This document shows positions 46,514-61,627 of a stretch of 64,000 nt of DNA, piece by piece. A program made the translations under genes and the position numbers. The stretch is from Mycolicibacterium sp. MU0050. Its GTDB lineage: Bacteria > Actinomycetota > Actinomycetes > Mycobacteriales > Mycobacteriaceae. Within the stretch, counting starts at the first letter, position 1, and every line of letters begins with the position of its first letter. The notes beneath the pieces were generated by a model. That model saw only the letters and a list, made by a program, of their open reading frames with translations. It did not search any database and was not told where the DNA came from. The stretch is from positions 806,001 to 870,000 of the forward strand of contig NZ_OY726395.1 of the NCBI RefSeq assembly GCF_963378085.1. The letters are read 5' to 3'.

Positions 46514-46562
46514 AGCCTCACCAATCCGTGCGGTCAACTGTGTAGGGGAGTGCCGACGGCCG

Positions 46563-47189: not shown

Positions 47190-47231
47190 GAGATTTCTCC
47201 TGTTGTGTTGTGCGGTGGTTTATTTCGATGG

Positions 47232-47810: not shown

Positions 47811-47877
47811 CGATGCTCCTGGGGTAGCTGAGTTCTGCTGACCAGCTTGCAGTTGCGGAGGCTGGAAGACACCCCGC

Positions 47878-47894
47878 CATCGGGTGAGTCTTCG
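47878..47894 (+). promoter_or_regulatory. Shared box copy B
   Basis: CATCGGGTGAGTCTTCG lies 68 bp upstream of the hxlB start and 52 bp upstream of the regulator GTG at 47946. It differs from the copy at 43222-43238 at one position. A location between the divergent operon and regulator is expected for a regulator-binding site. Confidence 0.55.
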
Positions 47895-47907
47895 CTAGCC
47901 TCTCGGC

Positions 47908-47931
47908 CATTTCCGTTCGGCAGCCGAAATG
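47908..47931. promoter_or_regulatory. Inverted repeat before the LuxR-type regulator
   Basis: Arms CATTTC and GAAATG are separated by 12 bp (CGTTCGGCAGCC). The element ends 3 bp before a TACCGT hexamer (47934-47939) that fits a -10 box with its last T 7 bp before the GTG at 47946, consistent with a leaderless transcript. The repeat could be an autoregulatory operator. Confidence 0.45.
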
Positions 47932-47945
47932 CCTACCGTGTAGCG

Positions 47946-49241
47946 GTGGGCAGCTACACCGAGGTCCCAGTAGGTCGGCTTTCTCCGCAGGCTCTGGCCT
48001 GTCTTCGCGAGGTGGTCGACGGTCCGTTGCCCGATATCGCGGCGCGCCTGTCCCGATTGCTCGCCGAATCATGGCCGCACGAAGCCCTGGTGATCTTCAC
48101 CCGGGAATGTACCGGCCGTCCGAGAAAGGTCGCCGGCAAGGACGACATCGTCGACCGGGTCACCATCGATGAATTGGCCGACCTCAAACGGTCGGTGGAA
48201 CCGGGCGGCGTGGCCGCAGGGCTTCGGCTTTTTGCCGGTGTGCAACAATACATCTGGGTGGTGCGCGACGTCAACGGCGTGCTTTTGGTGATCGTCCCGA
48301 AACGGCGCGGTGCGCAGACCGTCGACCTCGGCCCGATTGCCGCGGTGTTCGGTATCGTCGCGACGTCGATCCAGCAGCAGGTGACCCAGGCGAGCCCGGA
48401 CTACCTGGCCGAGTCACGTGCGGCTTCGGCCGAACGCGCTCGAATCATCACCGAACTCACCGAGATTCACGATGCGACGTTGTCGTCGATCCTGGCCACT
48501 CTGCGTTCCAACGACCTCGATGATCGGCGTTCACGCATCACCGCCAGTGAGACGGCTTCGGCCGCATTGATCGAGCTGCGAACCAAAGGGGCGATGGATC
48601 GTGCGCTGTCCGAGGAGGCCGTCACTACAGCGTTCGCCCGGTTGCAGGGTGAGCTGCGGTCGATTCTGCGGCACCGCGACATCGACGTCGACTACGTCGA
48701 GCCACCGGCGGACGGCCGCCCGCTACCCGGTGAGATCGCCCACGCTGCTCGGGCCATGGTTCGTGCGGTCGTGCTCACCCTCAGCGCACAGACGGTGGTC
48801 ACGCGCATCCGGATCGCTTGGGACTGCGACGGATCCAACCTGGCCATCGAAGTCCGCGACCAGGGGCCGGGCACGATCGACTGCAACGCACTATCGCGCC
48901 AGTTGTCCGGTCGGGTGCAGACTCTCAACGGACAGATGGACATCGAATCCATTGCCGGCTGGGGCAGCCGAATCGTTCTGCGGGTGCCGTTGGATCCACC
49001 GGTATCTCGGTCCGATGACCACATCTTCTCCAGTTTGAACCCTCGCGAGCTCGCGGTGCTGTCTCAACTGGCCGACGGTGCGAGGAACAAGGCGATCGCC
49101 GCAGAACTCGGCATTGCCGAAAGTACCGTCAAATTCCATGTCGCCAGTGTGTTGCGCAAGCTCGGTGCCGAGAATCGTGGTGTGGCAGGGGCGATGGCGG
49201 TCCGTGCGGGAATCGTGGGGTCAGCCCCGCAGCGTCGCTGA
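47946..49241 (+). CDS. LuxR-type regulator with sensor-kinase-like core
   Basis: This 431-residue protein has an N-terminal GAF-like sensory part (about 10-150), a HisKA_3-like helix with His175 (ERARIITELTEIHDATLSSI), an HATPase-like segment (IEVRDQGPGTI near 310), and a C-terminal LuxR HTH (LNPRELAVLSQLADGARNKA, AAELGIAESTVKFHV). The HATPase lacks a recognisable N-box Asn, so kinase activity is doubtful. The GTG at 47946 with a leaderless -10 is preferred over the longer frame from 47847. It is divergent from the RuMP operon, its probable target. Confidence 0.78.
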   Translation: MGSYTEVPVGRLSPQALACLREVVDGPLPDIAARLSRLLAESWPHEALVIFTRECTGRPRKVAGKDDIVDRVTIDELADLKRSVEPGGVAAGLRLFAGVQQYIWVVRDVNGVLLVIVPKRRGAQTVDLGPIAAVFGIVATSIQQQVTQASPDYLAESRAASAERARIITELTEIHDATLSSILATLRSNDLDDRRSRITASETASAALIELRTKGAMDRALSEEAVTTAFARLQGELRSILRHRDIDVDYVEPPADGRPLPGEIAHAARAMVRAVVLTLSAQTVVTRIRIAWDCDGSNLAIEVRDQGPGTIDCNALSRQLSGRVQTLNGQMDIESIAGWGSRIVLRVPLDPPVSRSDDHIFSSLNPRELAVLSQLADGARNKAIAAELGIAESTVKFHVASVLRKLGAENRGVAGAMAVRAGIVGSAPQRR

Positions 49242-50216
49242 CGGCGCTACGCCGAACTTTTTCTTGTACGCCATCGCGAAGCGGCCCAGATTCGCGAAAC
49301 CCCATGTGTGCGCGATCTCGGCCACGCCGGTCGTCGACGGATCCGCCGTGATCAACGCCGCATGAACGCGGTCGAGCCGGACGTCGCGCAGATAGGCCAT
49401 CGGTGTCATCCCCACATACTCCTGGAAGGACTCCTGCAGTCGGCGCACGCTGCATCCGCCGATGTTGGCCAGGTCGGCGGCGGTGAATGCACGATGCGGG
49501 TACTCCTCGATCGCGTCGATGACCAGCTTCACGGTGCGCGGGCGCAACACCTCGCTCGGCCCCTGCAGTTCGTTCTGGAAGCGGTGGCCGGCAGCGAAGA
49601 TCAGGCCCATCACAATGCCGTCTTCGAGGTGGCTTGCCAGCAAGGGATAGCGAGCCAGGGCAGCGGTTCGGTCGGCGGATCGAAGCTCGCGATCCAGTTG
49701 CTGGACCATCCGCCACCAGGTGGCGCCCAGTCCCGAATCGATTTGCAGCGATGCGTCGAAATCCACCGTGTCCACCTCGGATCGGCCGAGGATCGACTGC
49801 AGGCGATCCTCGACCGCTGCCCGGTCGATCTTGATGGTGAGCACCCGACTCGCCGCGTACCACTTGCGCAGGAGGGTGTGCCCTGTCGGGCGGTAGATCG
49901 TGGCTACCCGCGGAGTTGCCTGGGTGAGGGTGTGCGCGACCTTGGAGTCGATCGCTCCGCTGAGTGGGACGTTGACATGGTAGGCGGTGCGAAGCTCCGC
50001 GCAGTCGATCTCCACGTCGGAGGCGTAGGTCAGTTCACCAAGCGTCAGAGAGTTCAGCGTGCTGGTTCGCAGGACCATCTCGAAGGGGACCGATCGGTCG
50101 AGAACCTTCATCCGCTGCGGATAGTAAGAGCTGCTGCCGAGCTCCTGCGCCTGCTCCGGGTCCGCGGCCACCTGGGTGCGGACGGGGATCCGACCCGCGC
50201 CGCCAAGAGTTTTCAA
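49221..50216 (-). CDS. AraC family transcriptional regulator
   Basis: This 331-residue regulator has an AraC-binding-like N-terminal domain (VPFEMVLRTSTLNSLTLGEL, RPTGHTLLRKWYA) similar to AraC_binding_2 proteins, and a C-terminal double HTH: LANIGGCSVRRLQESFQEYV and VAEIAHTWGFANLGRFAMAY, then KKKFGVAP. The TTG at 50216 has AGGAG 5 bp upstream, which supports this rare start. It lies downstream of the first P450 on the same strand and overlaps the convergent LuxR-type gene by 21 bp. It is a likely regulator of the P450/hydroquinone genes. Confidence 0.85.
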   Translation of the reverse strand: MKTLGGAGRIPVRTQVAADPEQAQELGSSSYYPQRMKVLDRSVPFEMVLRTSTLNSLTLGELTYASDVEIDCAELRTAYHVNVPLSGAIDSKVAHTLTQATPRVATIYRPTGHTLLRKWYAASRVLTIKIDRAAVEDRLQSILGRSEVDTVDFDASLQIDSGLGATWWRMVQQLDRELRSADRTAALARYPLLASHLEDGIVMGLIFAAGHRFQNELQGPSEVLRPRTVKLVIDAIEEYPHRAFTAADLANIGGCSVRRLQESFQEYVGMTPMAYLRDVRLDRVHAALITADPSTTGVAEIAHTWGFANLGRFAMAYKKKFGVAPSATLRG

Positions 50217-50344: not shown

Positions 50345-51535
50345 TCAGTGAACGGTGACCTCGAGGCGGTTGAAGCCCCGCAAGACGTGATTGAGCGCCC
50401 GCTCCGGCGAACCCGATATCTCGAACCGTTCGACGCGGGCGATGAGCGCCTCAAGTACCGCACCGATCTCCATCTTCGCCAGGTTCATTCCTAGGCACGC
50501 GTGTGGCCCGGCCCCGAACCCGAGATGGTCGATGGGGTTCCGACGGACGTCGAACCGGTCGGGATCGGGATACTTGACGGGATCACGATTGGCTGCACCC
50601 CAGAGGATCAGCGCGCGCGAACCTGCGGGCAGCGTGGCGTCGCCGAACACCGCATCTTGCAGCAGATAACGGGACCACCCCTGGATCGGCGACTCCATCC
50701 TGAGCACTTCATTGATGGCACTCGGGATGAGCTCCGCGTTGCCGCGCACGGCGTCCCACTGATCGGGGTGCTCCGCGAACAGATAAACCGCGCTGGCGAT
50801 GGCAGAGATCGTGGTGTCGAGGCTCGGGCCCATGTAGTCGATCATCAACGCCGGGCATGCCGATGGGTCGATGACTCCGCGTGCTGCGGCGTGGTGCACC
50901 GCCTCAGCCCAGCTGCCTGGTTTCAGCTTGCCGGGCACCGCCTGCGTCGTCGCGTATTCCACCATCTCCTCCAGCACGGGCATCGAAGCACGGGTGCGCT
51001 CGTTGTCCGGGCCGAAGCAGTTGAACATCTGCGTGGCCCACACCAACATCTGGCTGCGGCCCTCCTCGGGCAGTCCCACCAGGTTCGCAACGATGTTGAC
51101 CGGCAGATGCTGGGCTAGATCGGTCACCGCGTCGAATGTCTTGCGCATTACTAGGTCATCGACGAGTTCCTTTGCCATCGAGTCGATCTGCGGTTTGAGA
51201 GGTTGCAGGGCCCGGGGCGTGAGCGGATCGATGATCACTCTGCGCTGAGCCGCGTGCCGTTCGCCGTCACTGCACAGCGTGTTGCCCCGCAACACCTGGT
51301 TCATCGTCTCGTTCATCATCACGCCGCTGGCCGAGGAGAACGTCTGCCAGTTGGTCAGGGCCCGCTTCGCCTCGGCGTAACCGGTGAAGGCATACATCTG
51401 GAGGTCGGTCAGCCAGGCGATGCTGCCCAGCTCACGCAGCTGGCGATAACCTTCCCACGGGTCGAGTAATTGTGCCGGAGCGTAGAGGTCGATCGATGAA
51501 TGCGGGACTCCGGCTCCCAATTTTTCGTCAACCAT
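50345..51535 (-). CDS. Cytochrome P450, CYP199-like
   Basis: This 396-residue P450 has the heme motif HLGFGAGPHACLGM (Cys347), an I-helix SLDTTISA, and an ExxR pair at Glu276-Arg279. Its overall pattern (FNCFGPDNE, ESPIQ, AANRDPVKYPDPDRFD) resembles CYP199A enzymes, which demethylate or hydroxylate para-substituted benzoates. The ATG at 51535 has GGAGG 4 bp upstream. It diverges from the PDR-type reductase and is followed by the AraC regulator. The substrate is inferred, not shown. Confidence 0.82.
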   Translation of the reverse strand: MVDEKLGAGVPHSSIDLYAPAQLLDPWEGYRQLRELGSIAWLTDLQMYAFTGYAEAKRALTNWQTFSSASGVMMNETMNQVLRGNTLCSDGERHAAQRRVIIDPLTPRALQPLKPQIDSMAKELVDDLVMRKTFDAVTDLAQHLPVNIVANLVGLPEEGRSQMLVWATQMFNCFGPDNERTRASMPVLEEMVEYATTQAVPGKLKPGSWAEAVHHAAARGVIDPSACPALMIDYMGPSLDTTISAIASAVYLFAEHPDQWDAVRGNAELIPSAINEVLRMESPIQGWSRYLLQDAVFGDATLPAGSRALILWGAANRDPVKYPDPDRFDVRRNPIDHLGFGAGPHACLGMNLAKMEIGAVLEALIARVERFEISGSPERALNHVLRGFNRLEVTVH

Positions 51536-51941
51536 GTTGCCTCCTGGCGTTCGCAGTTGGGAATTGGTGCCTGGTCGTGGACCGGCACTCAGCGCTGTGG
51601 GTCTGTCACGGCGGTCACCGCACGTCCTGTGGGACAGCACTATTCGTTGAATGAAAAGTACTTCGGTAGACGGAAACTATCCGGTATCTTTCAACACAAG
51701 TCAAGGGGATGCCCACGCAGGTGGCCACACCGCGAGGAATCCGAGCGCCTCCGACCGTCGCCCTGTCGTCTCGGCGCGTGTGCGCAACGAGGGTGTGATC
51801 GGGCTGCGAATGTCCCACCCAGGTGGGCGCCCTCACATTCGTCGCGCAATCTGACCAGTTGCCGCGCAAACGGGGTAGTTCACCACGTCGACCAGCCATA
51901 ACGTCATCCACACACCTCGCGCATCGTTAAAGGCATGGCAC
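51536..51941. promoter_or_regulatory. Divergent control region of P450 and hydroquinone operon
   Basis: This 406-bp gap separates the CYP199-like gene from the reductase gene. It holds an inverted repeat at 51807-51841: outer arms CGAATGT (51807-51813) and ACATTCG (51835-51841), and an inner CCCACC/GGTGGG pair (51814-51827). An AT-richer block at 51635-51700 may hold promoters. No ORF here is convincing. AraC or IclR binding is likely. Confidence 0.55.
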
Positions 51942-52910
51942 ATGAACTCCTCAGAAACACTGTGGGTCACCGTTTCCCAGGTCACCCACGAAGCCGACGA
52001 CATCCGCTCGTTCGAGCTACGTCCCCTCGACGGTGGCCCGTTGCCGCCGTTCGAGGCCGGCGCACACGTCGACGTGCACATCGGTACCCAGTACATCCGG
52101 CAGTACTCGCTGTGCAACAACCCCGCCGAACGCGACCGCTACGAGATCGGTGTGCTCAACGACCGCACCGGCCGCGGCGGATCCACCGCGCTGTTCGAGC
52201 TCTTCGAGGTAGGGCACAAGGTTCAGATCAGCGTGCCGCGCAACCACTTCCGGGTCGATCCTGAAGCGGAGCATGTTCTGCTCATCGGCGCTGGGATCGG
52301 CATCACACCCCTGCTTTCCATGGCCGAGCAACTGCACTCGGCCGACAGATCGTTCGAGCTCGTGTACCGGTCGAGGTGCCGGGAACGCGCCGGGTTCGTC
52401 GAACGGATCAACACCGCACCCTGGTCCGGTCAGGCGCAGATCTACCTGAGTAGCGAGCTCGTACAGCCGTTCGAGCTCGATACGGTGCTGGCCTCGGCGG
52501 CGTCGGGCACACAGGTGTATACGTGCGGCCCGGAGGGGTTCATCGCGGCCGTGGAAGCCGCTGCCGGCCGGGCGTTGTTGTCGCCCTCGGCCGTGCGCAA
52601 GGAACTGTTCACCAATGCCAACCTGAACACCGCCACCGGCGAACGGGAGTTCAAGGTCACCCTCGCCCAATCCGGTGGCACCTACACCATTCCGGTGGGC
52701 CGCTCCGTCGTCGATGTGCTGCAAGAAGAGGGCGTCGACGTGCTGGTCTCCTGCGAATCGGGCGTGTGTGGATCCTGTGTCGTCGGTGTCATCGACGGGG
52801 TGCCCGAGCACCGCGACGTCTTTCTCACCGACGAAGAACGTGCCTCCAACGCGGAGTTCACCCCCTGCTGTTCCCGCGCTGTGGGCGACCACCTCACTAT
52901 CGACCTCTGA
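51942..52910 (+). CDS. PDR-type oxygenase reductase (flavin + 2Fe-2S)
   Basis: This 322-residue reductase has an N-terminal flavin domain (RQYSLCN), an NAD domain (IGAGIGITPLLSMAEQL, VYTCGPEGFI) and a C-terminal plant-type 2Fe-2S domain (SCESGVCGSC, then a fourth Cys in FTPCCSRA). This is the phthalate dioxygenase reductase/VanB order. No Rieske oxygenase partner is nearby, so it probably feeds the P450 that starts 47 bp downstream. It begins the main catabolic operon. The ATG at 51942 is accepted although its ribosome site is weak. Confidence 0.87.
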   Translation: MNSSETLWVTVSQVTHEADDIRSFELRPLDGGPLPPFEAGAHVDVHIGTQYIRQYSLCNNPAERDRYEIGVLNDRTGRGGSTALFELFEVGHKVQISVPRNHFRVDPEAEHVLLIGAGIGITPLLSMAEQLHSADRSFELVYRSRCRERAGFVERINTAPWSGQAQIYLSSELVQPFELDTVLASAASGTQVYTCGPEGFIAAVEAAAGRALLSPSAVRKELFTNANLNTATGEREFKVTLAQSGGTYTIPVGRSVVDVLQEEGVDVLVSCESGVCGSCVVGVIDGVPEHRDVFLTDEERASNAEFTPCCSRAVGDHLTIDL

Positions 52911-52957
52911 CGTCCCCAGACCCCTGTCCAGCGCCAACCAGAGAAAGAGGAAAACGA

Positions 52958-54250
52958 ATGACAAGCACCGTATCGAAGTGCCCCGTGTCGAAGTTTGCCG
53001 CGGACTTCAACCCGTTCACCAATCCGTACCTGGCCGATCCCTACACGCCGCTGGCGCAGGCTCGGCGGGAGGAGCCGGTCTTCTACAGTCCCGAGTTGGA
53101 CTACTTCGTCGTCACTCGCTATGCAGATGTACGCGCGATCTTCCGTGACATCAAGTCGTTCTCGGCCGAAATCGCGCTCGAGCCCATCACGCCGATGTTC
53201 GAGTCGTCGATCCAGAAGATCATCGAGGTCGGATACGTCCCCGGACCTGCGCTGGTGAACGAGGACGAGCCCGGACACATGAAGCGCCGGAGGCGGCTTT
53301 CCGGCATGTTCACGCCCGAGTCGGTGGCCGCGCTCGAACCCCGTATCCGTGCTCTGGTCAGCGGGTACATCGATGAATTCGTCCGGCGCGGCAACGCGGA
53401 CATCGTCGAGGACATGGTCTGGGAGGTGCCGGCGCTGGTCGCGTTCCTGTTCATGGGCGTTCCCGACGAGGACGTCCAGCGGGTCAAGCAGTTCGCCACC
53501 CGACGTACGTTGCTGACCTGGGGGCGGCCCAACGAGGCCGAGCAGAACACCCTGATCGACGAGATCGGCGACTACTGGAATTTCTGCAAACAGCACGTCG
53601 AGCGGACGCGGCAGAACATGGGCACCGACTTCGTCAGTGAGGTCATCCGTGCCAACGAGGAAGACCCGGAACTGTTCGACGAGATCTCGATGTACAACCT
53701 CATGCTGAACTTCCTGTTCGCGGCGCATGAAACCACAACCAACGCCTCGGCCAACGGCATCAAGACCCTGCTCGAGCATCCCGACCAGTGGCGGGCGATC
53801 TGCGAGGACCCCAGCCTCATTCCCAATGCCGTCGAGGAGATCCTTCGCTACAGCTCGTCCGTCATCGCCTGGCGCCGGCTCGCGCTGAAGACCGTGACCG
53901 TGGGTGGGGTCGAAATCCCCGAGGGCTCCAAGGTTCTGGTGGTCCTCGGCTCGGCAAACCATGACGAGGAGATGTTCGCTGACGGCAAGCAGTTCGACAT
54001 CCGTCGCGAGGGGGCGGCACGACACCTGTCCTTCGGTATCGGCACGCACACCTGCCTGGGCGCCCCGGTGGCCCGACTGGAGATGAGGGTCATCATCGAG
54101 GAGTTGACCCGACGGCTGCCGCATCTGCAGATCAAGCCCGGTCAGACGTTCACGTATTCCCCGAACACCTCGTTCCGAGGACCGGAACACGTACTCGTGC
54201 AATGGGATCCGACTCAGAACCCGGTGCCCGAAGACCGTCCGCTGAGCTGA
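52958..54250 (+). CDS. Cytochrome P450 in hydroquinone operon
   Basis: This 430-residue P450 has the heme motif HLSFGIGTHTCLGA (Cys366), the I-helix AAHETT (255-260), and ExxR at Glu294-Arg297. The N-terminal block (PVFYSPELDYFVVTRYADVR) and LLTWGRPNEAEQ recall CYP116-type P450s, which in fused form use a PDR-like reductase; here that reductase is the neighbouring gene. It probably O-dealkylates or ipso-hydroxylates a para-substituted phenol to hydroquinone (inference from the operon). The ATG at 52958 has GAGAAAGAGG upstream. Confidence 0.85.
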   Translation: MTSTVSKCPVSKFAADFNPFTNPYLADPYTPLAQARREEPVFYSPELDYFVVTRYADVRAIFRDIKSFSAEIALEPITPMFESSIQKIIEVGYVPGPALVNEDEPGHMKRRRRLSGMFTPESVAALEPRIRALVSGYIDEFVRRGNADIVEDMVWEVPALVAFLFMGVPDEDVQRVKQFATRRTLLTWGRPNEAEQNTLIDEIGDYWNFCKQHVERTRQNMGTDFVSEVIRANEEDPELFDEISMYNLMLNFLFAAHETTTNASANGIKTLLEHPDQWRAICEDPSLIPNAVEEILRYSSSVIAWRRLALKTVTVGGVEIPEGSKVLVVLGSANHDEEMFADGKQFDIRREGAARHLSFGIGTHTCLGAPVARLEMRVIIEELTRRLPHLQIKPGQTFTYSPNTSFRGPEHVLVQWDPTQNPVPEDRPLS

Positions 54251-54271
54251 CACAGACTAGGAGAACGGGAT

Positions 54272-54775
54272 ATGACCACCTACACCACCCGGTTCGGGTC
54301 ACTGGATTCCTACGATCCGGGCAAAGTTGTCATCGTCGACGATGATCCCCGCAACTACGCCTTCTCCAACGTGTTCGACGTGGCGTCGCGGGCCCAGCCG
54401 TTCGAGAAGATCGCAGTGGCCAAGAACCTCGAATACGTGCTCGAGGTCGTCCGTGTCGAGAACACCTCGCCCTGGCGCACCTGCGCGCACGACGAGTTCG
54501 CGCTGGTGATGGACGGAGAGGTCACGTTCGAATTCGTCGACCTGGACACACCGCCCGACAACCTGCCCGACGGTGGGTCCGTTGCCCTGACCGGCGAACC
54601 GTCCGGCCCCGAAATGGGCACCGTCATCGCCCACCAGGGACACATGGCACTCCTGCCCGCCGGCTCGGCGTATCGCTACTCGGCTCCCCGCCCGGCGGTG
54701 CTGCTGCTGCAGACGGTCGAGGGGCCGGACACCGTGTACCGCTGGTCCGAGATCTGCCAGACCACCATCAACTAA
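54272..54775 (+). CDS. hapC: Hydroquinone 1,2-dioxygenase small subunit
   Basis: This 167-residue cupin-like protein matches the size of the small (about 19 kDa) subunit of two-component Fe(II) hydroquinone dioxygenases (HapC/PnpC/HqdA). It contains RTCAHDEFALVMDGEVTFEF and IAHQGHMALLPAGSAY. Pairing with the 335-residue large subunit 12 bp downstream supports the call. The small subunit is needed for substrate binding and activity, while iron is held by the large subunit. A GGAG site precedes the ATG. Confidence 0.88.
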   Translation: MTTYTTRFGSLDSYDPGKVVIVDDDPRNYAFSNVFDVASRAQPFEKIAVAKNLEYVLEVVRVENTSPWRTCAHDEFALVMDGEVTFEFVDLDTPPDNLPDGGSVALTGEPSGPEMGTVIAHQGHMALLPAGSAYRYSAPRPAVLLLQTVEGPDTVYRWSEICQTTIN

Positions 54776-54787
54776 GGAGCCGTGACG

Positions 54788-55795
54788 ATGAGCACCGACA
54801 CCATCAGACCCGACGTGAGCCCGGCGGAGGGAAGCCGACCGACCAACACCCACGGGTACCGCGAATTCGAGCTCGGGGCGTTCCATCTCAGCCGCGACGA
54901 GTACTTCGCCTACATCACCTGGCCGACCGGCCAGCACGTGATGAGTGTCGACTCCTTCCTGCGCGCGCTGCAACGCGACGTCGCGTGGGATTTCTTCTAC
55001 GGGATCGTGAACTTCGACGGTGTGTTCGGCACCACCAACCACTACGGCACCGTCGACGTCTTCGCCGGCCGGTACAACGATGCGTACCGGAAGGCCGAGC
55101 TCGATCACGTTGAAACGCTGGACACACCGGTGATCCGGGAGGTCTTCGTCGACATCATCAAGGACTGGACCAATGCCGGATTCGACCCGTTCGCGTCGCC
55201 GGCGGAGACCGGAAGCGCGTTCGGCGTCAAGCGGGGCGACAACCACGAGGCGGTGAGCCGTGAGCGGGTGACCGCGCAGCGGATGGTCGGCGTGGCCGGC
55301 GACGAGCAGCCGCGCAGCGACGACTCCGGGTACCCGATCAACCGGCAGTTCCTCGATGTTCCGCAAGATGAGCCGCAGGTCAAGCCGGAACCGGGATACG
55401 AGGACCGCATCGCGGCATTCAGTTTGAAGGCCTACCTGTCGCGCTCGGACGTCACCTGGAATCCCAGCGTGGTGTCGGTGTGCCGGGAGTCGCTGATGTG
55501 CCCGACGACCGAGGAGTACATCCTGCCGATCATCCACGGCAACGATCGCTCCGAGTGGTTCATCCAGCTCTCGGACGAGATCACGTGGGAGGTGGAGGAC
55601 CGCGATACCGGGCGCAAGCGCGCAACGGTGGTGATGAAGCCCGGCGACGTGGCGGCCATGCCGGCCGACATCCGGCACCAGGGCTATTCGCCCAAGCGCT
55701 CGATGCTGCTGGTCTGGGAGAACAACAGCAGTCTGATCCCCGAACTCATTGCCGAGGGCAAGATCTCGCCGCAACCGGTGGAGTTCGCCGGATGA
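54788..55795 (+). CDS. hapD: Hydroquinone 1,2-dioxygenase large subunit
   Basis: This 335-residue subunit carries the iron site of the PnpD/HapD family at the exact family spacing. His250, Asn252 and Glu256 lie in IHGNDRSEWF, and His297 lies in PADIRHQGYS, corresponding to PnpD His256, Asn258, Glu262 and His303. The enzyme opens hydroquinone to 4-hydroxymuconic semialdehyde. The ATG at 54788 has AAGGAG 8 bp upstream and is better placed than the GTG at 54782. Its stop overlaps the ALDH start (ATGA). Confidence 0.93.
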   Translation: MSTDTIRPDVSPAEGSRPTNTHGYREFELGAFHLSRDEYFAYITWPTGQHVMSVDSFLRALQRDVAWDFFYGIVNFDGVFGTTNHYGTVDVFAGRYNDAYRKAELDHVETLDTPVIREVFVDIIKDWTNAGFDPFASPAETGSAFGVKRGDNHEAVSRERVTAQRMVGVAGDEQPRSDDSGYPINRQFLDVPQDEPQVKPEPGYEDRIAAFSLKAYLSRSDVTWNPSVVSVCRESLMCPTTEEYILPIIHGNDRSEWFIQLSDEITWEVEDRDTGRKRATVVMKPGDVAAMPADIRHQGYSPKRSMLLVWENNSSLIPELIAEGKISPQPVEFAG

Positions 55796-57264
55796 ACACC
55801 CCCAACCAGCTCTTCATCGACGGCGAGTTCGTCGACGCGCTCGCCGGCGGGACGGTGGCGGTCCACGACCCGCACGACGGGTCGAAACTGACCGACATCG
55901 CCGAAGGGCGCGGCGAGGACATCGACCGGGCCGTGGCGGCGGCGCGCAAGGCGGCCACAGATTGGGCGGCGACGCCCGCCGCGGACCGCGGTCGGCTGCT
56001 GTTGCGGCTGGCGGACGCGATCGAGGCGAGCGGGGACGAACTGGCCCTGCTCGAAACCCGCGACACCGGGCACCCGATCAGGGACACGACCCGCCTGGAC
56101 GTGCCGAGAACCGCGGCGACCTTCCGGTATTTCGGCGGCATCGCCGACAAGTATCAGGGCAGCGTGGTGCCGGTGGAGCGGGGCTTCCTCAACTACGTCC
56201 AACGCAAGCCGGTGGGGGTGGCCGGATCGATCGTGCCCTGGAACTTCCCGCTGATGTTCACCAGTTGGAAGCTGGGCCCGGCGCTCGCGGCCGGCAACAC
56301 CGCCGTGATGAAGCCCAGTGAACTGACTCCGCTGTCGACGTTGCGGCTGGCCGAGTTGATCGCCGAGGTCGGGATTCCGCCGGGGGTGGTCAACATCGTT
56401 CCCGGTTACGGGGACACGGCGGGTCAGCACCTGGCCGAGCACCCCGACGTCGACAAGATCTCGTTCACCGGGTCGACGCAGGTGGGCCGCGGCGTGGTGC
56501 ATGCCAGTGCCGGGAATCTGAAGCGGGTCCAACTCGAACTCGGCGGCAAGGGAGCCAACATCGTCTTTGCCGACGCCGACATCGACCAGGCCGTCCAGGG
56601 TTCGGCGTTCGCCATCTTCCACAACCAGGGGCAAGCCTGTATCGCCGGCAGCCGACTGCTCCTGCACGAATCGATTGCCGACGAGTTTCGGGAGAAGTTT
56701 CTGGCGCTGGCGGCGTCGATCCGGGTCGGGGATCCCAAGGACCCCGGAACCGAGATGGGGCCACTGACCAGCTCCCTGCACCAGCAGCGGGTGCTGGAGT
56801 GGGTCGATACGGCGCGAACGGAAGGATGCCAGATCCTGCTCGGCGGCACCGTGCCGGACGAGGCCCCCGCAGCGGGCTGTTATGTCGCACCGACCGTCGT
56901 GGCGGCGGCCACCGGCACGCGAGTCACCCTCGAGGAGGTGTTCGGTCCCTTCGTCACGGTCGGCACATTCACCACCGATGACGATGCGCTGACCCAGGCC
57001 AACGCCACCCAATACGGCCTCGGGGCCGGGTTGTGGACCACGGACCTGGCCCGCGCGCATCGGTTCTCCGACCAGCTGCGAGCCGGAATGGTGTGGGTCA
57101 ACAGCTACAAACGGGTAAATCCCGGGTCACCCTTCGGTGGCGTCGGGGGATCGGGCTACGGCCGAGAGATGGGATTCGAGGCTATGCACGAATATACCGA
57201 GGCACAGTCGATCTGGATCAATACCGAGCGACTCCCACCCTGGTACCCGCGCGACCAGGCCTGA
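55792..57264 (+). CDS. hapE: Aldehyde dehydrogenase (4-hydroxymuconic semialdehyde)
   Basis: This 490-residue ALDH has the NAD fold with GSIVPWNFPL and SFTGSTQVG, general-base Glu in LELGGKGANIVFADAD, and the nucleophile Cys in NQGQACIAGSR, with FGPFVTVGTF near the end. In hydroquinone pathways this position is filled by the dehydrogenase that oxidises 4-hydroxymuconic semialdehyde to maleylacetate (HapE/PnpE). Translation is coupled to hapD by a 4-bp overlap. The specificity assignment rests on context. Confidence 0.87.
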   Translation: MNTPNQLFIDGEFVDALAGGTVAVHDPHDGSKLTDIAEGRGEDIDRAVAAARKAATDWAATPAADRGRLLLRLADAIEASGDELALLETRDTGHPIRDTTRLDVPRTAATFRYFGGIADKYQGSVVPVERGFLNYVQRKPVGVAGSIVPWNFPLMFTSWKLGPALAAGNTAVMKPSELTPLSTLRLAELIAEVGIPPGVVNIVPGYGDTAGQHLAEHPDVDKISFTGSTQVGRGVVHASAGNLKRVQLELGGKGANIVFADADIDQAVQGSAFAIFHNQGQACIAGSRLLLHESIADEFREKFLALAASIRVGDPKDPGTEMGPLTSSLHQQRVLEWVDTARTEGCQILLGGTVPDEAPAAGCYVAPTVVAAATGTRVTLEEVFGPFVTVGTFTTDDDALTQANATQYGLGAGLWTTDLARAHRFSDQLRAGMVWVNSYKRVNPGSPFGGVGGSGYGREMGFEAMHEYTEAQSIWINTERLPPWYPRDQA

Positions 57265-57291
57265 CCGTTAGCTCTGTGAGGAAGTACGACA

Positions 57292-58401
57292 ATGAACCGA
57301 TTCATCCGCGAAAGTCTGCCCAGCCGAATAGTTTTCGGTGGTAACAGACTCGAGAGCGAGCTCTACGGCGAGATCCGATTGCTCGGGTCGGTGGCTCCGT
57401 TGCTCATCTCCAACGCATCCACCGATTTGAACCAATTGGTCACCTCGCTGCACCCGGGCTGGGCCGGCCAGTGGACCGACGTGCGTCAGCACGTGCCCAC
57501 CGAGTTGGCCGACCGTTGCCATCAGCGGGCGGCAGATCTGAAGGCAGATCTCTTGGTCGCGGTGGGCGGCGGCAGTGCGACGGGGCTGGCGAAGGCCGTC
57601 GCGTACCGCAGTGGTCTCCGGATCCTGTGCGTACCAACCACCTACGCGGGATCGGAGATGACGCCGATCTGGGGCCAGACCGATGCGTTGAAGAAGACGA
57701 CGGCCCGCGACAACAAGGTGCTACCCGCGACGGTGATCTACGACCCCCTACTGCTCGTGCCGTTGCCGGGGCCGGTGGTAGCGGCAAGTGGCATGAACGC
57801 GCTGGCGCATTGCGTGGAGGCGTTGTACGCGCCCAAAGCCGACCCACTGAGCACGCTGATGGCGGTGGACGCCGCGGGGTTGTTGTTCGACCATCTGCGG
57901 GCGGCTGCGCAGGCGGCCCAGGGATCGGCGCGGGGGGAGATCTTGTGGGCGTCGTGTCTGGCTGGATCGGTGCTGGGGACCGTCGGGGGGTCGCTGCACC
58001 ATTCCATCTGTCACATCCTCGGCGGCCTGCACGAACTTCCGCACGCCGAGACTCACGCGGCCGTGCTGCCGCAGGCGCTGGCCTATCTACTCGATGCCGT
58101 GTCGCTCCGATTGCGGCCGCTGGCAGCACGACTCGGGGCTGTGGTCAATGAATTGCCGGGCATGATCTGGGATCTCGGCGCCAGCGTTGGCACACCGGCC
58201 GGGCTGTCCGAGATCGGCATCACCGAAGGCGACCTTCCGGGTATCGTGACGGCATTGCTGGATGCCAACCCGGCCGCGCCGGTGCCGTTGACACTCGAGG
58301 ACGCCACCGAGTTGGTCGACAGGCTGTTCCATGGCGATCGCCCGACTGCATCCCGGCCTGTCGCGGCCGCCGGCGCCGACAGGAGGGGTCGTGCCACCTA
58401 G
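57292..58401 (+). CDS. hapF: Maleylacetate reductase
   Basis: This 369-residue iron-containing alcohol dehydrogenase family protein has VAVGGGSATGLAKAVAYR, PTTYAGSEMTPIWG and the HHSICHILGGLHELPHAETH segment typical of maleylacetate reductases. It reduces maleylacetate to beta-ketoadipate with NAD(P)H. The conserved His residues remain although this subgroup generally does not need iron. It lies 27 bp after the ALDH and overlaps the next gene by 11 bp. Confidence 0.92.
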   Translation: MNRFIRESLPSRIVFGGNRLESELYGEIRLLGSVAPLLISNASTDLNQLVTSLHPGWAGQWTDVRQHVPTELADRCHQRAADLKADLLVAVGGGSATGLAKAVAYRSGLRILCVPTTYAGSEMTPIWGQTDALKKTTARDNKVLPATVIYDPLLLVPLPGPVVAASGMNALAHCVEALYAPKADPLSTLMAVDAAGLLFDHLRAAAQAAQGSARGEILWASCLAGSVLGTVGGSLHHSICHILGGLHELPHAETHAAVLPQALAYLLDAVSLRLRPLAARLGAVVNELPGMIWDLGASVGTPAGLSEIGITEGDLPGIVTALLDANPAAPVPLTLEDATELVDRLFHGDRPTASRPVAAAGADRRGRAT

Positions 58402-59215
58402 TCACGACATCACCGATCGGCTGGTCGCACAGTTGCAGCAGACGCCCAACCCGCGACTGCGCGAGGTGATGATCGCACTCGCACGGCACCTCCACCAATT
58501 CGCCATCGAAATCGAACTCACCCCGCAGGAATGGGAAGTCGGGATCGAATTCCTCACGGCCACCGGGCAGCTGAGCAACGCCGACCGGCAAGAGTTCATC
58601 CTGCTGTCCGATGTCCTGGGATTGTCCTCGCTGGTCGAGCAGATCGACGATCGGGACCGGCGGTCGACGGAGTCGACCGTGCTGGGTCCGTTCTATCGGG
58701 AGCACAGTCCGCGCCGGCAGGCCGGTGCCACGATCTTCGAGCGACCCAGCGGGACACCGACCCGTTACAGCGGGCGGGTCCTCGACCTCGACGGAGACCC
58801 CATAGCCGGTGCGACAGTCGATGTCTGGCAGAACGGCGCGGATCGGCTCTATGCGGCCCAGGATCCGAGCGCGCCGCCGGCCAATCTGCGCGGTGTGTTC
58901 ACCACCGACGACGCCGGACGGTACTGCTTCGTGGGGGTGCGTCCGGTCGACTATCCGGTACCGACGGATGGGCCGGTGGGCACGCTGCTGAAAGCGACGT
59001 CGCGCTCCGAGTGGCGTGCAGCCCACATCCATGCGATCGTGCGCGCCGACGGGTACCGGCCCGTGACAACCCATTTGTTCGACGACGCCAGCGACCACCT
59101 GGACTCCGATGTCGTCTTCGGCGTCAAGGATTCGCTGATCAAACGTTTCATTCGCCATGAAACCGACGAGGGGTATTCCGTCGAGCATGACTTCGTGCTG
59201 GAACGCCTGCTGTGA
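58391..59215 (+). CDS. Hydroxyquinol 1,2-dioxygenase (intradiol)
   Basis: This 274-residue intradiol dioxygenase has the ligand Tyr in VLGPFYREHSP, the second Tyr in GRYCFVGVRP and the His pair in AAHIHAIVRADGY. The N-terminal helical domain (about 1-95) is typical of hydroxyquinol/catechol 1,2-dioxygenases. It cleaves hydroxyquinol (1,2,4-trihydroxybenzene) to maleylacetate. The GTG at 58391 has AGGAGG 4 bp upstream inside hapF; the frame extends to 58331, but that start lacks a site. Catechol activity is possible. Confidence 0.88.
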   Translation: MPPSHDITDRLVAQLQQTPNPRLREVMIALARHLHQFAIEIELTPQEWEVGIEFLTATGQLSNADRQEFILLSDVLGLSSLVEQIDDRDRRSTESTVLGPFYREHSPRRQAGATIFERPSGTPTRYSGRVLDLDGDPIAGATVDVWQNGADRLYAAQDPSAPPANLRGVFTTDDAGRYCFVGVRPVDYPVPTDGPVGTLLKATSRSEWRAAHIHAIVRADGYRPVTTHLFDDASDHLDSDVVFGVKDSLIKRFIRHETDEGYSVEHDFVLERLL

Positions 59216-60075
59216 CCGCTCAACTCGCCAGTCCGGCCCACGTCCAGGACGGTCTGCGACAGCACGGCTACCTCGCCGACGCCGCGGTCGGCGAAGCGGT
59301 GTTCCTGGCCGACCGGCTGGGTCGCGCCATCCTGGTCGAAGGACCGGCCGGGGTCGGCAAAACGCAGCTGGCCAAGTCGGTCGCTCAGCTCGGTGGGCGT
59401 CCGCTGTTCCGACTGCAGTGCTACGAGGGTCTCGATGAGGCAAAAGCGCTGTACGAGTGGGACTATCGTAAGCAGTTGCTCCGGCTGCAGGCCGGCAATA
59501 ACCAACGCCAGTCGACGTGGAGCCAAGCCCACGACGAGTTGTTCGATGAACAGTTCCTACTGGCGAGGCCCTTGTTGCAGGCATTGCAGTCGCCGGTCCC
59601 CTCGGTGCTCCTCATCGACGAGGTTGACCGGGTGGAGGCGGAAACCGAGGCGCTCTTCTTCGAGGTGCTTGCGGAGAACCAAGCCACGATTCCGGAACTG
59701 GGAACCATCGTGGGCCGCCATCGACCGCAGATCTTCTTGACCAGCAACGGTACTCGCGAACTTTCGGAGGCGCTCAAACGCCGCTGTCTGTTCCTGCACA
59801 TCGGCTACCCCGATGCCGAGGCCGAGGCCGCGATCATCCGACAGCACCTCCCCGACATGAGCGCAGCGTTGTCCTCGCACGTCGCTCGAGTGCTGGCCGC
59901 GCTGCGCAAATTGGACCTCGGGAAGCCGCCGTCGGTGGCCGAAGGGATCGACTGGGCACGCAGTCTCCAGTTGCTGGAAATCGACGATGTAGCGGGAAAC
60001 CTGGCCCGGGGTTTACCCGTGCTGCTCAAGAGTCGAAGCGATATCGACGCCGCCCTGGCCGCGTCGATAGGTTGA
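59212..60075 (+). CDS. MoxR-type AAA+ ATPase
   Basis: This 287-residue AAA+ protein has Walker A VEGPAGVGKTQLAKS, CYEGLDEAKALYEWDYRKQL, Walker B VLLIDEVDRVE and sensor-1 FLTSNGTRELSEALKRRCL. It resembles CoxD/CbbQ-like MoxR ATPases. The GTG overlaps the dioxygenase stop (GTGA), so it is part of the operon. Such ATPases usually act with VWA proteins in metalloenzyme maturation. The matching VWA gene lies at 61628, separated by two reverse-strand genes. Confidence 0.88.
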   Translation: MTAQLASPAHVQDGLRQHGYLADAAVGEAVFLADRLGRAILVEGPAGVGKTQLAKSVAQLGGRPLFRLQCYEGLDEAKALYEWDYRKQLLRLQAGNNQRQSTWSQAHDELFDEQFLLARPLLQALQSPVPSVLLIDEVDRVEAETEALFFEVLAENQATIPELGTIVGRHRPQIFLTSNGTRELSEALKRRCLFLHIGYPDAEAEAAIIRQHLPDMSAALSSHVARVLAALRKLDLGKPPSVAEGIDWARSLQLLEIDDVAGNLARGLPVLLKSRSDIDAALAASIG

Positions 60076-60096: not shown

Positions 60097-60909
60097 TCAA
60101 AAGCGCAGTGCCAGAGAACGGTTGATATCGGCGGCGGCCACCAGCAGCGCCGGCAGTATCCGCTCGCGCATCTCGTCAGGGGAGACTCGGCCGGTGTGGG
60201 CGGAGATCGCGACGGCGGCGATGGTCTGGCCCTGATCGTGAACAGGAGCCGCGACGCATTGGACGCCGGCTTCGAGTTCCTGTTCGACGAGGCAGAATCC
60301 GTCCCGGCCTGCTCGCTGCACGGCTCGCTTGAGCGCCGTGACGGATTTTACGGTGTACAGGGTGCGATCGGCGGGTGCGCGTGATAGCAGGCCGGCGAAG
60401 TCGACCCCGCTCTGCGCGGCGAGCAGCACCCGCCCCATCGACGACGCGAACGCGGGGATCCGCGTGCCTACCTCGATGTCCATCGACATAATGCGCCGGT
60501 ACGGCACCCGAACGGTGTACAGCACGTCGTCGTTGTCGAGCACACCCGCGGATGTCGATTCTCCAACCTCGCGGGCCAAGTCCTCCAGCCGTGTCCGGAC
60601 GATGTCCCAGGTGCGATTCGTCGCGAGGTACGCGTGGCCGAACTCCAGGACCCTGGGCGCCAACGACCAGGTCCGCCCGTCGGTGCGGACGTATCCGAGC
60701 GCGTGCAACGTCATGAGCAGTCGGCGGGTGGTCGCCGGTGACAGCTCGACGGTCTTCGCCACCTCCGCCAGGGTCAGCGCCGAGGTGTCCGGTCCGAATG
60801 CGTGCAGCACCGACAGGCCACGGTCCAACGCCCGCACGTATTCGGCGGACGCACCGGTCTCGGGGCCTCCGGGCAGCTCCGAATCCAGTGTGGGATCCAC
60901 AATCGTCAC
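60097..60909 (-). CDS. IclR family transcriptional regulator (PcaR/PobR-like)
   Basis: This 270-residue regulator has an N-terminal winged HTH (LSVLHAFGPDTSALTLAEVA, VELSPATTRRLLMTLHALGY) and an effector domain with ASSMGRVLLAA, CLVEQELEAGVQCVAAPV and DMRERILPAL-type ends. The PcaR/PobR subgroup controls aromatic catabolism, with beta-ketoadipate or 4-hydroxybenzoate as effectors. It is convergent with the MoxR gene (21-bp gap). The start is GTG 60909; a GTG a few codons in is also possible. Confidence 0.87.
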   Translation of the reverse strand: MTIVDPTLDSELPGGPETGASAEYVRALDRGLSVLHAFGPDTSALTLAEVAKTVELSPATTRRLLMTLHALGYVRTDGRTWSLAPRVLEFGHAYLATNRTWDIVRTRLEDLAREVGESTSAGVLDNDDVLYTVRVPYRRIMSMDIEVGTRIPAFASSMGRVLLAAQSGVDFAGLLSRAPADRTLYTVKSVTALKRAVQRAGRDGFCLVEQELEAGVQCVAAPVHDQGQTIAAVAISAHTGRVSPDEMRERILPALLVAAADINRSLALRF

Positions 60910-60952: not shown

Positions 60953-61591
60953 TCAGGATTGTGCCGGGCCGCCCCAACCTGCCGGCGGCAGTGGATCTGC
61001 CGACCGCGGACTGCCTGGATAGTGAGTTTCCAGTGTTCCCACCGCGATTGAAGAGAGTTGCGCCAAGTGATCGACGAGATCTCCTTGCGGGAGGATGCAG
61101 CACAGCTGGCGGATGCCGCCGGCGGCCAGCCGGGCTACCTTCTCCTGGACGTCTTCCAGCCGGCCGACCAGCGCGTCGTCGAGGTCCCCGGCCAGGTCTT
61201 GAAAGAGCGGATCGCCCGCGGCCCTGGCCTTGGCCTCGGCATCGGTGCGTCCGACACTTACTGCGACGTCGACGGATCGGTACTGTCGCCCTGCGACGGC
61301 TGCGAACAAGTCGCGGCCGGCCCAGGCAGGTAAGTGGTCGGCCGATGTCGGGGATTCGCCCGAGCGCCAACTGCGACGTACGACGGGCAGCGGTGATCCG
61401 AACTCCTCGCCGAGTCGGGCGGCATCGGCTGACGTGGGTGCCAGCGGGCCGTCCTCGGCGAACAGGATCGACTCCAGACCGACACGCGCGCCGATCGAGG
61501 TCAGTAACGACAGTTGATCCACTCCGCGGCGCAGATCCGCCCACACGGACACGGCAAGCAGGTTGTCCATTACCATCATCGGGTCTTTCAC
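60953..61591 (-). pseudogene. Remnant of an LLM (luciferase-like) enzyme
   Basis: This 212-residue frame starts like an LLM protein (LLAVSVWADLRRGVDQLSLL, RVGLESILFAEDGPL) and then jumps near residue 55 to the C-terminal part of such enzymes (VDVAVSVGRTDAEAKARAAG, LVGRLEDVQEKVARLAAGGI). It ends with SPRSADPLPPAGWGG. The barrel middle (roughly 90-100 residues of a normal LLM) is absent, so it is probably an internal-deletion pseudogene, although the frame is still open. It lies between the IclR gene (43-bp gap) and the divergent VWA gene (36-bp gap). Confidence 0.6.
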
Positions 61592-61627
61592 TTTGCGAAT
61601 ACTATTCCGTCTAGCGAAGGATTGTAT

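What the first reader, a model, noticed from the sequence alone, without database searches (positions are those of the whole stretch)
50345..60075. P450-initiated hydroquinone pathway in a mycobacterium-like genome
A near-continuous operon encodes a PDR-type reductase, a P450, both subunits of Fe(II) hydroquinone 1,2-dioxygenase, an aldehyde dehydrogenase, maleylacetate reductase and hydroxyquinol dioxygenase. A CYP199-like P450 is divergent. The four iron ligands of the large subunit sit at exact PnpD spacing. Hydroquinone clusters known from p-nitrophenol or acetophenone degraders start with flavin monooxygenases; here a P450 occupies that position. A plausible route is 4-alkoxyphenol or 4-alkoxybenzoate to hydroquinone to beta-ketoadipate.
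Basis: partly seen in the sequence, partly recalled or inferred. Interest (0 to 1): 0.85.

Follow-up and report, generated by a model that had tools for sequence, protein, structure and literature searches.

The report
P450-fed hydroquinone pathway with formaldehyde capture
A mycobacterium-like bacterium carries, side by side, genes for two P450 enzymes, for splitting open hydroquinone and for capturing formaldehyde, which together look like a route for eating methoxylated phenols.

Summary
A second P450 (P450a) is divergent.

Three points change the reading. Relatives of P450b and its reductase lie near the same operon on R. jostii plasmid pRHL3 and in a same-genus genome, though in only 2 of 15 other loci examined. 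This points to O-demethylation. (2) P450b is a standalone CYP116, outside the fused CYP116B clade. (3) P450a is only 37% identical to a PbdA-like (CYP199A) P450 and lacks most carboxylate-binding residues; a p-alkoxyphenol or 1,4-dimethoxybenzene route fits better than 4-alkoxybenzoate.

Of the 80 HapD loci kept, one has a detected P450, about 9 kb away, and none has hxlA. A P450a+P450b+reductase unit recurs in two genomes of one genus, probably Pseudonocardia.

Verdict: a new combination of known parts. The downstream pathway is secure by homology. P450 initiation is likely. The substrate is inferred, not shown.

The parts
45611..46537 (-). gnd-like NAD-dependent 6-phosphogluconate dehydrogenase (RuMP-linked)
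   Evidence: TIGR00872 314 bits against a cut-off of 297; 74% identical to gnd beside hxlA on RHA1 pRHL3
46563..47189 (-). hxlA, 3-hexulose-6-phosphate synthase (formaldehyde fixation)
   Evidence: TIGR03128 247 bits against a cut-off of 200; 90% to pRHL3; over the cut-off in 4 of 119 genomes searched, this one included
47232..47810 (-). hxlB, 6-phospho-3-hexuloisomerase
   Evidence: TIGR03127 225 bits against a cut-off of 160; 77% to pRHL3
47847..49241 (+). LuxR-type regulator next to the RuMP operon
   Evidence: GerE domain; 67% to the regulator at the same place on pRHL3, 54% in G055
49221..50216 (-). AraC-family regulator
   Evidence: PF14525 + HTH_18; an AraC-type relative lies within 6 kb of P450b-like genes in 12 of 15 other loci
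50345..51535 (-). P450a, divergent P450 related to but outside CYP199A
   Evidence: PF00067 106 bits; 37% to a PbdA-like protein, 65% to a Pseudonocardia plasmid P450; carboxylate-binding residues mostly lost
51942..52907 (+). PDR-type reductase (flavin, NAD, C-terminal 2Fe-2S)
   Evidence: phylogenetically unplaced long branch; a PDR lies within 400 bases of the P450b-like gene in 7 of 15 other loci
52958..54247 (+). P450b, standalone CYP116-family P450
   Evidence: best PDB hits include P450 RhF (CYP116B2) and two fused P450s; 56% to the pRHL3 P450 that a source names CYP116; tree places it outside the fused CYP116B clade
54272..54772 (+). HapC, hydroquinone 1,2-dioxygenase small subunit
   Evidence: 5m21_A E 4.8e-53; no Pfam or NCBIfam hit
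54782..55792 (+). HapD, hydroquinone 1,2-dioxygenase large subunit
   Evidence: PF18191 E 2.5e-55; 5m21_B E 7e-137, 4zxa_W E 2e-126 with the ligand positions conserved
55792..57261 (+). aldehyde dehydrogenase, presumed 4-hydroxymuconic semialdehyde dehydrogenase
   Evidence: PF00171 570 bits; best NCBIfam HpaE, below its cut-off; median gap to HapD 88 bases in the 62 of 80 loci that have it
57292..58398 (+). maleylacetate reductase
   Evidence: 3jzd, 3w5s, 3iv7 and 3hl0 at E 1e-66 to 3e-64; 3w5s and 3hl0 are named maleylacetate reductase
58391..59212 (+). hydroxyquinol 1,2-dioxygenase (GTG start at 58391 behind an AGGAGGGG; an upstream ATG at 58331 is possible)
   Evidence: 3n9t E 1e-73, 8r2x, 1tmx (run from 58331); sequence of the start region
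59212..60072 (+). MoxR-type AAA ATPase, last gene of the run
   Evidence: AAA_5; NF047784 MadB 288 bits, below its cut-off of 475
60097..60909 (-). IclR regulator of PcaR/PcaU type
   Evidence: TIGR02431 268 bits, just under its cut-off of 285
61514..62938 (+). VWA CoxE-like protein, usual partner of MoxR
   Evidence: PF05762 142 bits; VWA near HapD in 23 of 27 close, well-flanked loci

Best explanation
An acquired catabolic island for p-methoxylated arenes such as 4-methoxyphenol or 1,4-dimethoxybenzene. P450b, with the adjacent PDR-type reductase, and probably P450a sharing it, remove O-methyl (or larger O-alkyl) groups, giving hydroquinone plus formaldehyde (inferred). HapCD opens hydroquinone to 4-hydroxymuconic semialdehyde, the ALDH makes maleylacetate, and the maleylacetate reductase makes beta-ketoadipate; the hydroxyquinol dioxygenase feeds hydroxyquinol in at maleylacetate (by homology). 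HxlA and HxlB fix the released formaldehyde through ribulose monophosphate (inferred from position). The MoxR/VWA pair may mature or repair an iron dioxygenase (inferred).
For: Homology and gene order for every downstream enzyme. RuMP operon 2.5 kb from P450a and 5.1 kb from P450b. A P450b relative, a PDR and hxlA-hxlB also lie together on RHA1 pRHL3 (with maleylacetate reductase and an intradiol dioxygenase 51% to the window's) and in genome G055 (with catechol 1,2-dioxygenase above its cut-off, a muconate-cycloisomerase-family protein, an HpaB-type monooxygenase and EthD). Genuine hxlA is rare (4 of 119 genomes with this one); 3 of those 4 have a P450b-like gene against 3 of the other 115 (Fisher 2.9e-4), and 2 of 3 against 3 of 115 without the window's own genome (0.004). 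P450a, P450b and a PDR recur together in L174 and L175, and the two P450 hit lists share 8 contig lengths where about 0.6 is expected. A P450a relative in R. opacus 1CP lies about 3.4 kb from npcA. P450b-like genes have an intradiol dioxygenase within 9 kb in 5 of 15 other loci.
Against: No activity, substrate or expression data. hxlA was found in only 2 of 15 other standalone P450b-like loci (L149, L148); the 13 without it include the closest ones, L174 and L175, which are limited by contig ends. Fused CYP116B enzymes para-hydroxylate a phenol (PMC8449657, PMC11889516), and four pocket positions that vary in the family match those hydroxylases in P450b. The window reductase is not orthologous to the RHA1 and G055 reductases (34-35%, unplaced long branch). 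In G040 the hxlA and P450b-like genes lie on different contigs and the P450 is only 44% identical; G062 has hxlA and no P450b-like hit; two of the six P450b-like genomes carry fused proteins. The co-occurrence is small-numbered and not corrected for kinship.
Confidence: 0.5

Rival explanations
1. P450b is a phenol para-hydroxylase: it turns phenol or a 2- or 3-substituted phenol directly into a (substituted) hydroquinone for HapCD, as the fused CYP116B OhpA turns 2-hydroxyphenylacetate into homogentisate.
For: Experimental function of OhpA and CYP116B234 (PMC8449657: abstract and section 10; PMC11889516: abstract, section 19 and passages). By my alignment P450b has S, A, W and T at the four positions that vary in the family (CYP116B234 numbering 313, 84, 199, 198), as the 2-HPA hydroxylases do.
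Against: P450b is outside the fused clade. Its B-C loop (GPALVNEDEP) differs from the fused sequences (RTLVNEDEP). It does not explain the linked formaldehyde operon in three loci, nor why two P450s recur together.
Confidence: 0.22
2. O-demethylation of methoxyhydroquinone or another methoxylated dihydroxybenzene to hydroxyquinol is the main route, with the hydroxyquinol dioxygenase as the main ring opener and HapCD as a side branch.
For: A hydroxyquinol dioxygenase is in the operon; pRHL3 and L176 pair the P450 type with a dioxygenase 48-51% to it and a maleylacetate-reductase-like gene, and no HapC or HapD match was found there.
Against: HapCD and ALDH directly follow the P450 in the window. 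Hydroxyquinol dioxygenase relatives are ordinary companions of HapCD (33 of 80 loci), so their presence is weakly diagnostic.
Confidence: 0.12
3. The P450s are neighbours by chance of gene transfer, or act far upstream (for example on a bisphenol or alkylphenol side chain), and do not themselves make hydroquinone.
For: 1 of 80 HapD loci elsewhere has a detected P450; the genome holds dozens of P450 genes (57 match segments); none of 15 other P450b-like loci has a HapC or HapD match. In R. equi a P450 is proposed to attack bisphenol A upstream of 4-hydroxyacetophenone and hydroquinone-type genes (PMC9862853, passages).
Against: P450b and HapC are 21 bases apart in one run; P450b-like genes have an intradiol dioxygenase nearby in 5 of 15 other loci.
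Confidence: 0.13
4. 4-alkoxybenzoate route: P450a is a CYP199A-type demethylase giving 4-hydroxybenzoate, which is then turned into hydroquinone.
For: Best PDB hits of P450a are PbdA (9g9q) and other CYP199A.
Against: Only 37% to a PbdA-like protein. Of PbdA R84, S87, R236 and S237 (PMC11530827), P450a has R, T or G (depending on the alignment), I and D. No 4-hydroxybenzoate 1-hydroxylase candidate was seen among the cluster genes scanned.
Confidence: 0.03

Closest known systems
p-Nitrophenol hydroquinone pathway (pnpCDEFG) of Pseudomonas
   Same: Hydroquinone dioxygenase, semialdehyde dehydrogenase, maleylacetate reductase and hydroxyquinol dioxygenase in one cluster (gene functions recalled; PMC5603801 seen as search listing)
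   Different: Starts with a flavin monooxygenase (recalled); here a P450 and reductase sit directly before hapC, with a formaldehyde-fixing operon nearby
Two-component P450 O-demethylases PbdAB (CYP199A) of R. jostii RHA1 (PMC11530827, parts 1-2 of 5 and passages) and GcoAB (PMC6021390, search listing)
   Same: P450 with a cognate flavin/iron-sulfur reductase opening a methoxyarene pathway
   Different: Other P450 families; products p-hydroxybenzoate and vanillate (PbdAB) or, recalled, catechol (GcoAB) rather than hydroquinone; no hydroquinone or gene cluster in PMC11530827 (term counts)
CYP116B self-sufficient P450s (OhpA, CYP116B234; PMC8449657, PMC11889516)
   Same: Same P450 family (47-51% identity to the fused ones compared) with a phthalate-type reductase
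   Different: There the reductase is fused and the native reaction is para-hydroxylation of 2-hydroxyphenylacetate; here P450 and reductase are separate genes and P450b lies outside the fused clade
R. jostii RHA1 plasmid pRHL3 region, about 306-328 kb
   Same: PDR + CYP116-type P450, AraC, intradiol dioxygenase, maleylacetate reductase, gnd-hxlA-hxlB and LuxR
   Different: No HapCD match; a flavin reductase and an HsaA-like (below cut-off) oxygenase sit with the dioxygenase; no published function was found in the searches
Bisphenol A degradation in Rhodococcus equi DSSKP-R-001 (PMC9862853, passages)
   Same: A P450 is proposed upstream of hydroquinone-type genes (hqdD maleylacetate reductase)
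   Different: The P450 (called CYP130) attacks the bisphenol side chain, a 4-hydroxyacetophenone monooxygenase lies between, and no P450-HapCD operon is described in the passages seen

Membership tests
Hydroquinone 1,2-dioxygenase (PnpCD/HQDO) | Two adjacent subunit genes matching both solved subunits | tested here: met
Hydroquinone 1,2-dioxygenase (PnpCD/HQDO) | Large-subunit domain PF18191 above its cut-off | tested here: met
   186.7 bits against 25
Hydroquinone 1,2-dioxygenase (PnpCD/HQDO) | Cupin ligand positions H, N, E, H at PnpD spacing | tested here: met
   H252/N254/E258/H299 align to H256/N258/E262/H303 of 4zxa; their role as ligands is recalled
Hydroquinone 1,2-dioxygenase (PnpCD/HQDO) | Ring opening of hydroquinone | not testable with these tools
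   needs an enzyme assay
CYP116 P450 family (P450b) | At least 40% identity to, and grouping with, CYP116 members (threshold recalled) | tested here: met
   47-51% to fused and 44-66% to standalone relatives; tree
CYP116B self-sufficient P450 (P450b) | Reductase fused to the heme domain | tested here: not met
   separate genes; outside the fused clade
CYP199A (P450a) | At least 40% identity to CYP199A (threshold recalled) | tested here: not met
   36.8% to PbdA-like L123; identity to PbdA itself was not computed
CYP199A (P450a) | Carboxylate-binding Arg84, Ser87, Arg236, Ser237 (PbdA numbering) | tested here: not met
   R; T or G; I; D. Residues from PMC11530827
RuMP formaldehyde fixation (HxlA/HxlB) | Both equivalog-domain models above cut-off, adjacent genes | tested here: met
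Maleylacetate reductase | Among the closest solved structures, maleylacetate reductases well ahead of other iron alcohol dehydrogenases | tested here: met
   3w5s 228 and 3hl0 221 bits against 96 for the next named enzyme; 3jzd (229) and 3iv7 (222) carry generic names
Hydroxyquinol 1,2-dioxygenase | Closest to hydroxyquinol rather than catechol intradiol enzymes | tested here: met
   1tmx 217 and 8r2x 229 bits (best hit 3n9t, named PnpC, 251) against 129 for the best catechol 1,2-dioxygenase
MadB/MadC (NCBIfam) MoxR-VWA pair | Score above the curated cut-offs | tested here: not met
   288 of 475 and 125 of 600 bits
P450 O-demethylase-initiated catabolism | Formaldehyde release from a methoxyarene | not testable with these tools
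   only context evidence

The most novel reading that the evidence does not exclude
Two P450s sharing one reductase strip both methyl groups from 1,4-dimethoxybenzene-type compounds: P450b removes the first, and P450a, with an Asp where CYP199A binds a carboxylate with Ser237, removes the second from the resulting phenol. The carbon is split between a RuMP operon for the methyl groups and a HapCD operon for the ring. A MoxR/VWA pair, found near HapD across several phyla, keeps the hydroquinone dioxygenase iron active. This would give standalone CYP116 a native role and hydroquinone dioxygenase a dedicated activase.
Probability: 0.12. Interest if true: 0.75.

Novelty: new variant of a known kind. 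Interest (0 to 1): 0.55.

Why it matters
It would be a P450-initiated entry to the hydroquinone pathway with its own sink for the released formaldehyde, which matters for the breakdown of lignin-type and other natural methoxyarenes. It gives a concrete substrate hypothesis for standalone CYP116 P450s, for which what I read names only herbicides as substrates (ThcB, in PMC8449657), and for a P450 family next to CYP199A. It also exposes a linkage of hydroquinone dioxygenase with a MoxR/VWA pair that can be tested as an iron-enzyme activase.

Tried and rejected
P450b as a fission product of CYP116B: rejected; all seven fused proteins form one nested clade (100/100) inside standalone ones. 4-Alkoxybenzoate route through P450a: disfavoured by residues. 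The P450 as a usual HapCD neighbour: rejected. HapCD as a genus trait: rejected; besides the window's own genome none of the other 147 searched has a true HapD, and the five further matches are weak partial ones at 26-30% identity. Contig-length coincidence of HapD and P450b hits (68,151): no more than chance as a count, 1 seen against about 0.6 expected. Tree of the window reductase: long branch, no placement. MoxR tree: the window MoxR groups only weakly (81/73) with HapD-linked ones, and a core paralogue sits among the actinobacterial ones, so no exclusive HapCD-MoxR clade. Search of the family of G158 reached only 5 genomes. Paper searches for MadB/MadC with MoxR/VWA and for pRHL3 with P450/EthD/PDR returned nothing. 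No structure prediction or fold search was run.


Full report
What is there. The run 51942-60075 is a compact series of eight genes on the + strand: PDR-type reductase, P450b, HapC, HapD, aldehyde dehydrogenase, maleylacetate reductase, hydroxyquinol dioxygenase and a MoxR ATPase, with gaps or overlaps of 47, 21, 6, -4, 27, -11 (if the GTG start is right) and -4 bases (coordinates). P450a (50345-51535) and an AraC regulator (49221-50216) run the other way. Every reading frame is intact. Homology is strong for the downstream enzymes: HapD (PF18191 E 2.5e-55; solved hydroquinone dioxygenase large subunits E 7e-137 and 2e-126), HapC (E 5e-53), maleylacetate reductase and hydroxyquinol dioxygenase (best hit 251 bits, against 129 for the best catechol 1,2-dioxygenase).

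On the - strand at 45611-47810 lie gnd, hxlA and hxlB, all above curated cut-offs, next to a LuxR-type regulator at 47847. HxlA and HxlB fix formaldehyde. The same order gnd-hxlA-hxlB/LuxR occurs on plasmid pRHL3 of R. jostii RHA1 at 74, 90, 77 and 67% identity, in a stretch of about 22 kb that also holds a PDR reductase, a CYP116-type P450 (56% to P450b), AraC regulators, an intradiol dioxygenase (51% to the window's) and a maleylacetate reductase (42%). In same-genus genome G055 the P450 (53%), a PDR (35%), AraC, LuxR (54%), hxlB (66%) and hxlA (80%) lie within about 6.5 kb, with catechol 1,2-dioxygenase (467 bits, cut-off 404), a muconate-cycloisomerase-family protein (below cut-off), an HpaB-type monooxygenase and EthD nearby.

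How unusual this is. True hxlA is over the cut-off in 4 of 119 genomes searched, the window's own included, and a P450b-like gene (E at most 1e-100) is found in 6 of the same 119, two of them fused proteins. Three genomes have both: Fisher p 2.9e-4, or 0.004 without the window's own genome. The numbers are small and not corrected for kinship, and in one of the three (G040) the two genes lie on different contigs. Against this stands the locus count: of 15 other standalone P450b-like loci, hxlA was found in 2 (L149, L148), a PDR within 400 bases of the P450 in 7, an AraC within 6 kb in 12, an intradiol dioxygenase within 9 kb in 5, and HapC or HapD in none (flanks range from 0.8 to 18 kb, so some absences are contig ends). 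HapD proper is absent from the other 147 relatives searched. Of 158 HapD relatives found in the species collection the best 80 were kept. Among these 80, one locus (L021) has a detected P450, about 9 kb from HapD, and none has a match to hxlA, hxlB, the AraC or the PDR; 51 of the 80 have at least 5 kb on both sides. G+C is 0.63-0.66 over 50-60 kb, against about 0.69 over most of the first 36 kb, which agrees with acquisition.

The P450s. P450b's best solved matches are P450s of which RhF (CYP116B2) is named and the other four are, by recall, CYP116B too. In a tree of 29 P450s it groups with a standalone P450 of G158 (99/95), and all seven fused proteins form one nested clade (100/100). It is therefore a standalone CYP116 and not a split CYP116B. 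P450a matches CYP199A best but is only 36.8% identical to a PbdA-like protein. PbdA binds its benzoate with Arg84, Ser87 and Ser237, with Arg236 helping to hold a water (PMC11530827, parts 1-2 of 5). P450a has R, then T or G depending on the alignment, then D and I at these places. An Asp there suits a phenol better than a carboxylate; this is inference. P450a and P450b recur together: L174 (63 and 66%, with AraC between and a PDR after P450b) and L175 (60 and 66%, PDR after P450a). Eight contig lengths are shared between the two hit lists where about 0.6 is expected; one of the eight (7,816) joins different sources and may be chance, and one (10,357) is L174 itself. In R. opacus VOC-14 a CYP199-like P450 in two pieces lies near AraC and a P450b relative. 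In R. opacus 1CP a P450a relative lies near npcA and a dioxygenase. In L176 a P450b relative lies 5 to 8 kb from HQD-like (48%) and MAR-like (44%) genes.

Likely mechanism. By homology: hydroquinone to 4-hydroxymuconic semialdehyde to maleylacetate to beta-ketoadipate. Inferred: the P450s make hydroquinone by O-dealkylation, because formaldehyde-fixing genes accompany this P450 type in three loci whose ring-cleavage genes differ. Main rival: para-hydroxylation of a phenol, the proven native reaction of fused CYP116B OhpA (PMC8449657) and the suggested one of CYP116B234 (PMC11889516). Four positions that vary in the family (S313, A84, W199, T198 in CYP116B234) read the same in P450b by my alignment, which favours this rival; the B-C loop differs.

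MoxR and VWA. In the 46 loci with HapD of at least 67% identity, 27 have 5 kb on both sides; of these MoxR is present in 21, VWA in 23 and both in 20. In the 34 more distant loci MoxR is present in 0 and VWA in 1; in the 24 with such flanks both are absent. MoxR lies within 400 bases of HapD in four loci. The genome also has another MoxR/VWA pair (51 and 40% to the window's), and VWA relatives are found in 109 of 119 genomes, so a VWA match alone is weak; the MoxR tree shows no exclusive HapCD-linked clade. An activase for the iron dioxygenase is a fair hypothesis and no more.

Literature. The ten paper searches listed no paper whose title or abstract start describes a P450-HapCD operon or a P450-RuMP gene linkage; the library lacks most subscription journals, and most listed papers were not opened. 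PMC9862853 (passages) proposes a P450 attack on bisphenol A upstream of hydroquinone-type genes in R. equi, the nearest precedent seen. PMC11936349, PMC6193132, PMC13101518 and PMC13101465 were checked by passages only and show no such linkage there.

Verdict. It is a new combination of known modules with a testable substrate hypothesis. Its chemistry is unproven.

Noticed in passing
window 59212-60072 and 61514-62938; loci L015-L063: A MoxR ATPase and a VWA CoxE-like protein accompany hydroquinone dioxygenase in loci titled Actinomycetota, Rokubacteria, Chloroflexi, Dormibacterota and others, but almost never in the more distant, mostly proteobacterial loci; possible activase for an iron dioxygenase.
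   Followed up: partly
window 60953-61591 (-): A 212-residue protein without a Pfam or NCBIfam match has relatives in 13 of 46 close HapD loci; by eye some look like partial luciferase-like flavin proteins.
   Followed up: no
L106 8214-9281, L109 7407-8276: On R. opacus 1CP pR1CP1 and R. jostii RHA1 pRHL1 the order AraC-PDR-CYP116-type P450-intradiol dioxygenase is conserved; the dioxygenases match catechol 1,2-dioxygenase best but below its cut-off, a possible sister pathway ending in another diol.
   Followed up: partly
L105 4470-5649: In R. opacus VOC-14 a CYP199-like P450 is annotated in two pieces next to AraC and a P450b relative; apparently broken. Left as it stands.
   Followed up: no
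G000 whole genome: 57 P450 match segments, that is several dozen P450 genes, in a 5.2 Mb genome.
   Followed up: no
window 40858-42174 (-): Luciferase-like flavin monooxygenase (TIGR04027-like, below its cut-off) next to a cysteine-synthase-like gene; role unknown.
   Followed up: no
L174 1314-3140 (-): Between P450a and AraC of this P450 pair lies a FAD-binding aromatic-ring hydroxylase (PF01494 406 bits), perhaps the next step where HapCD is absent.
   Followed up: partly
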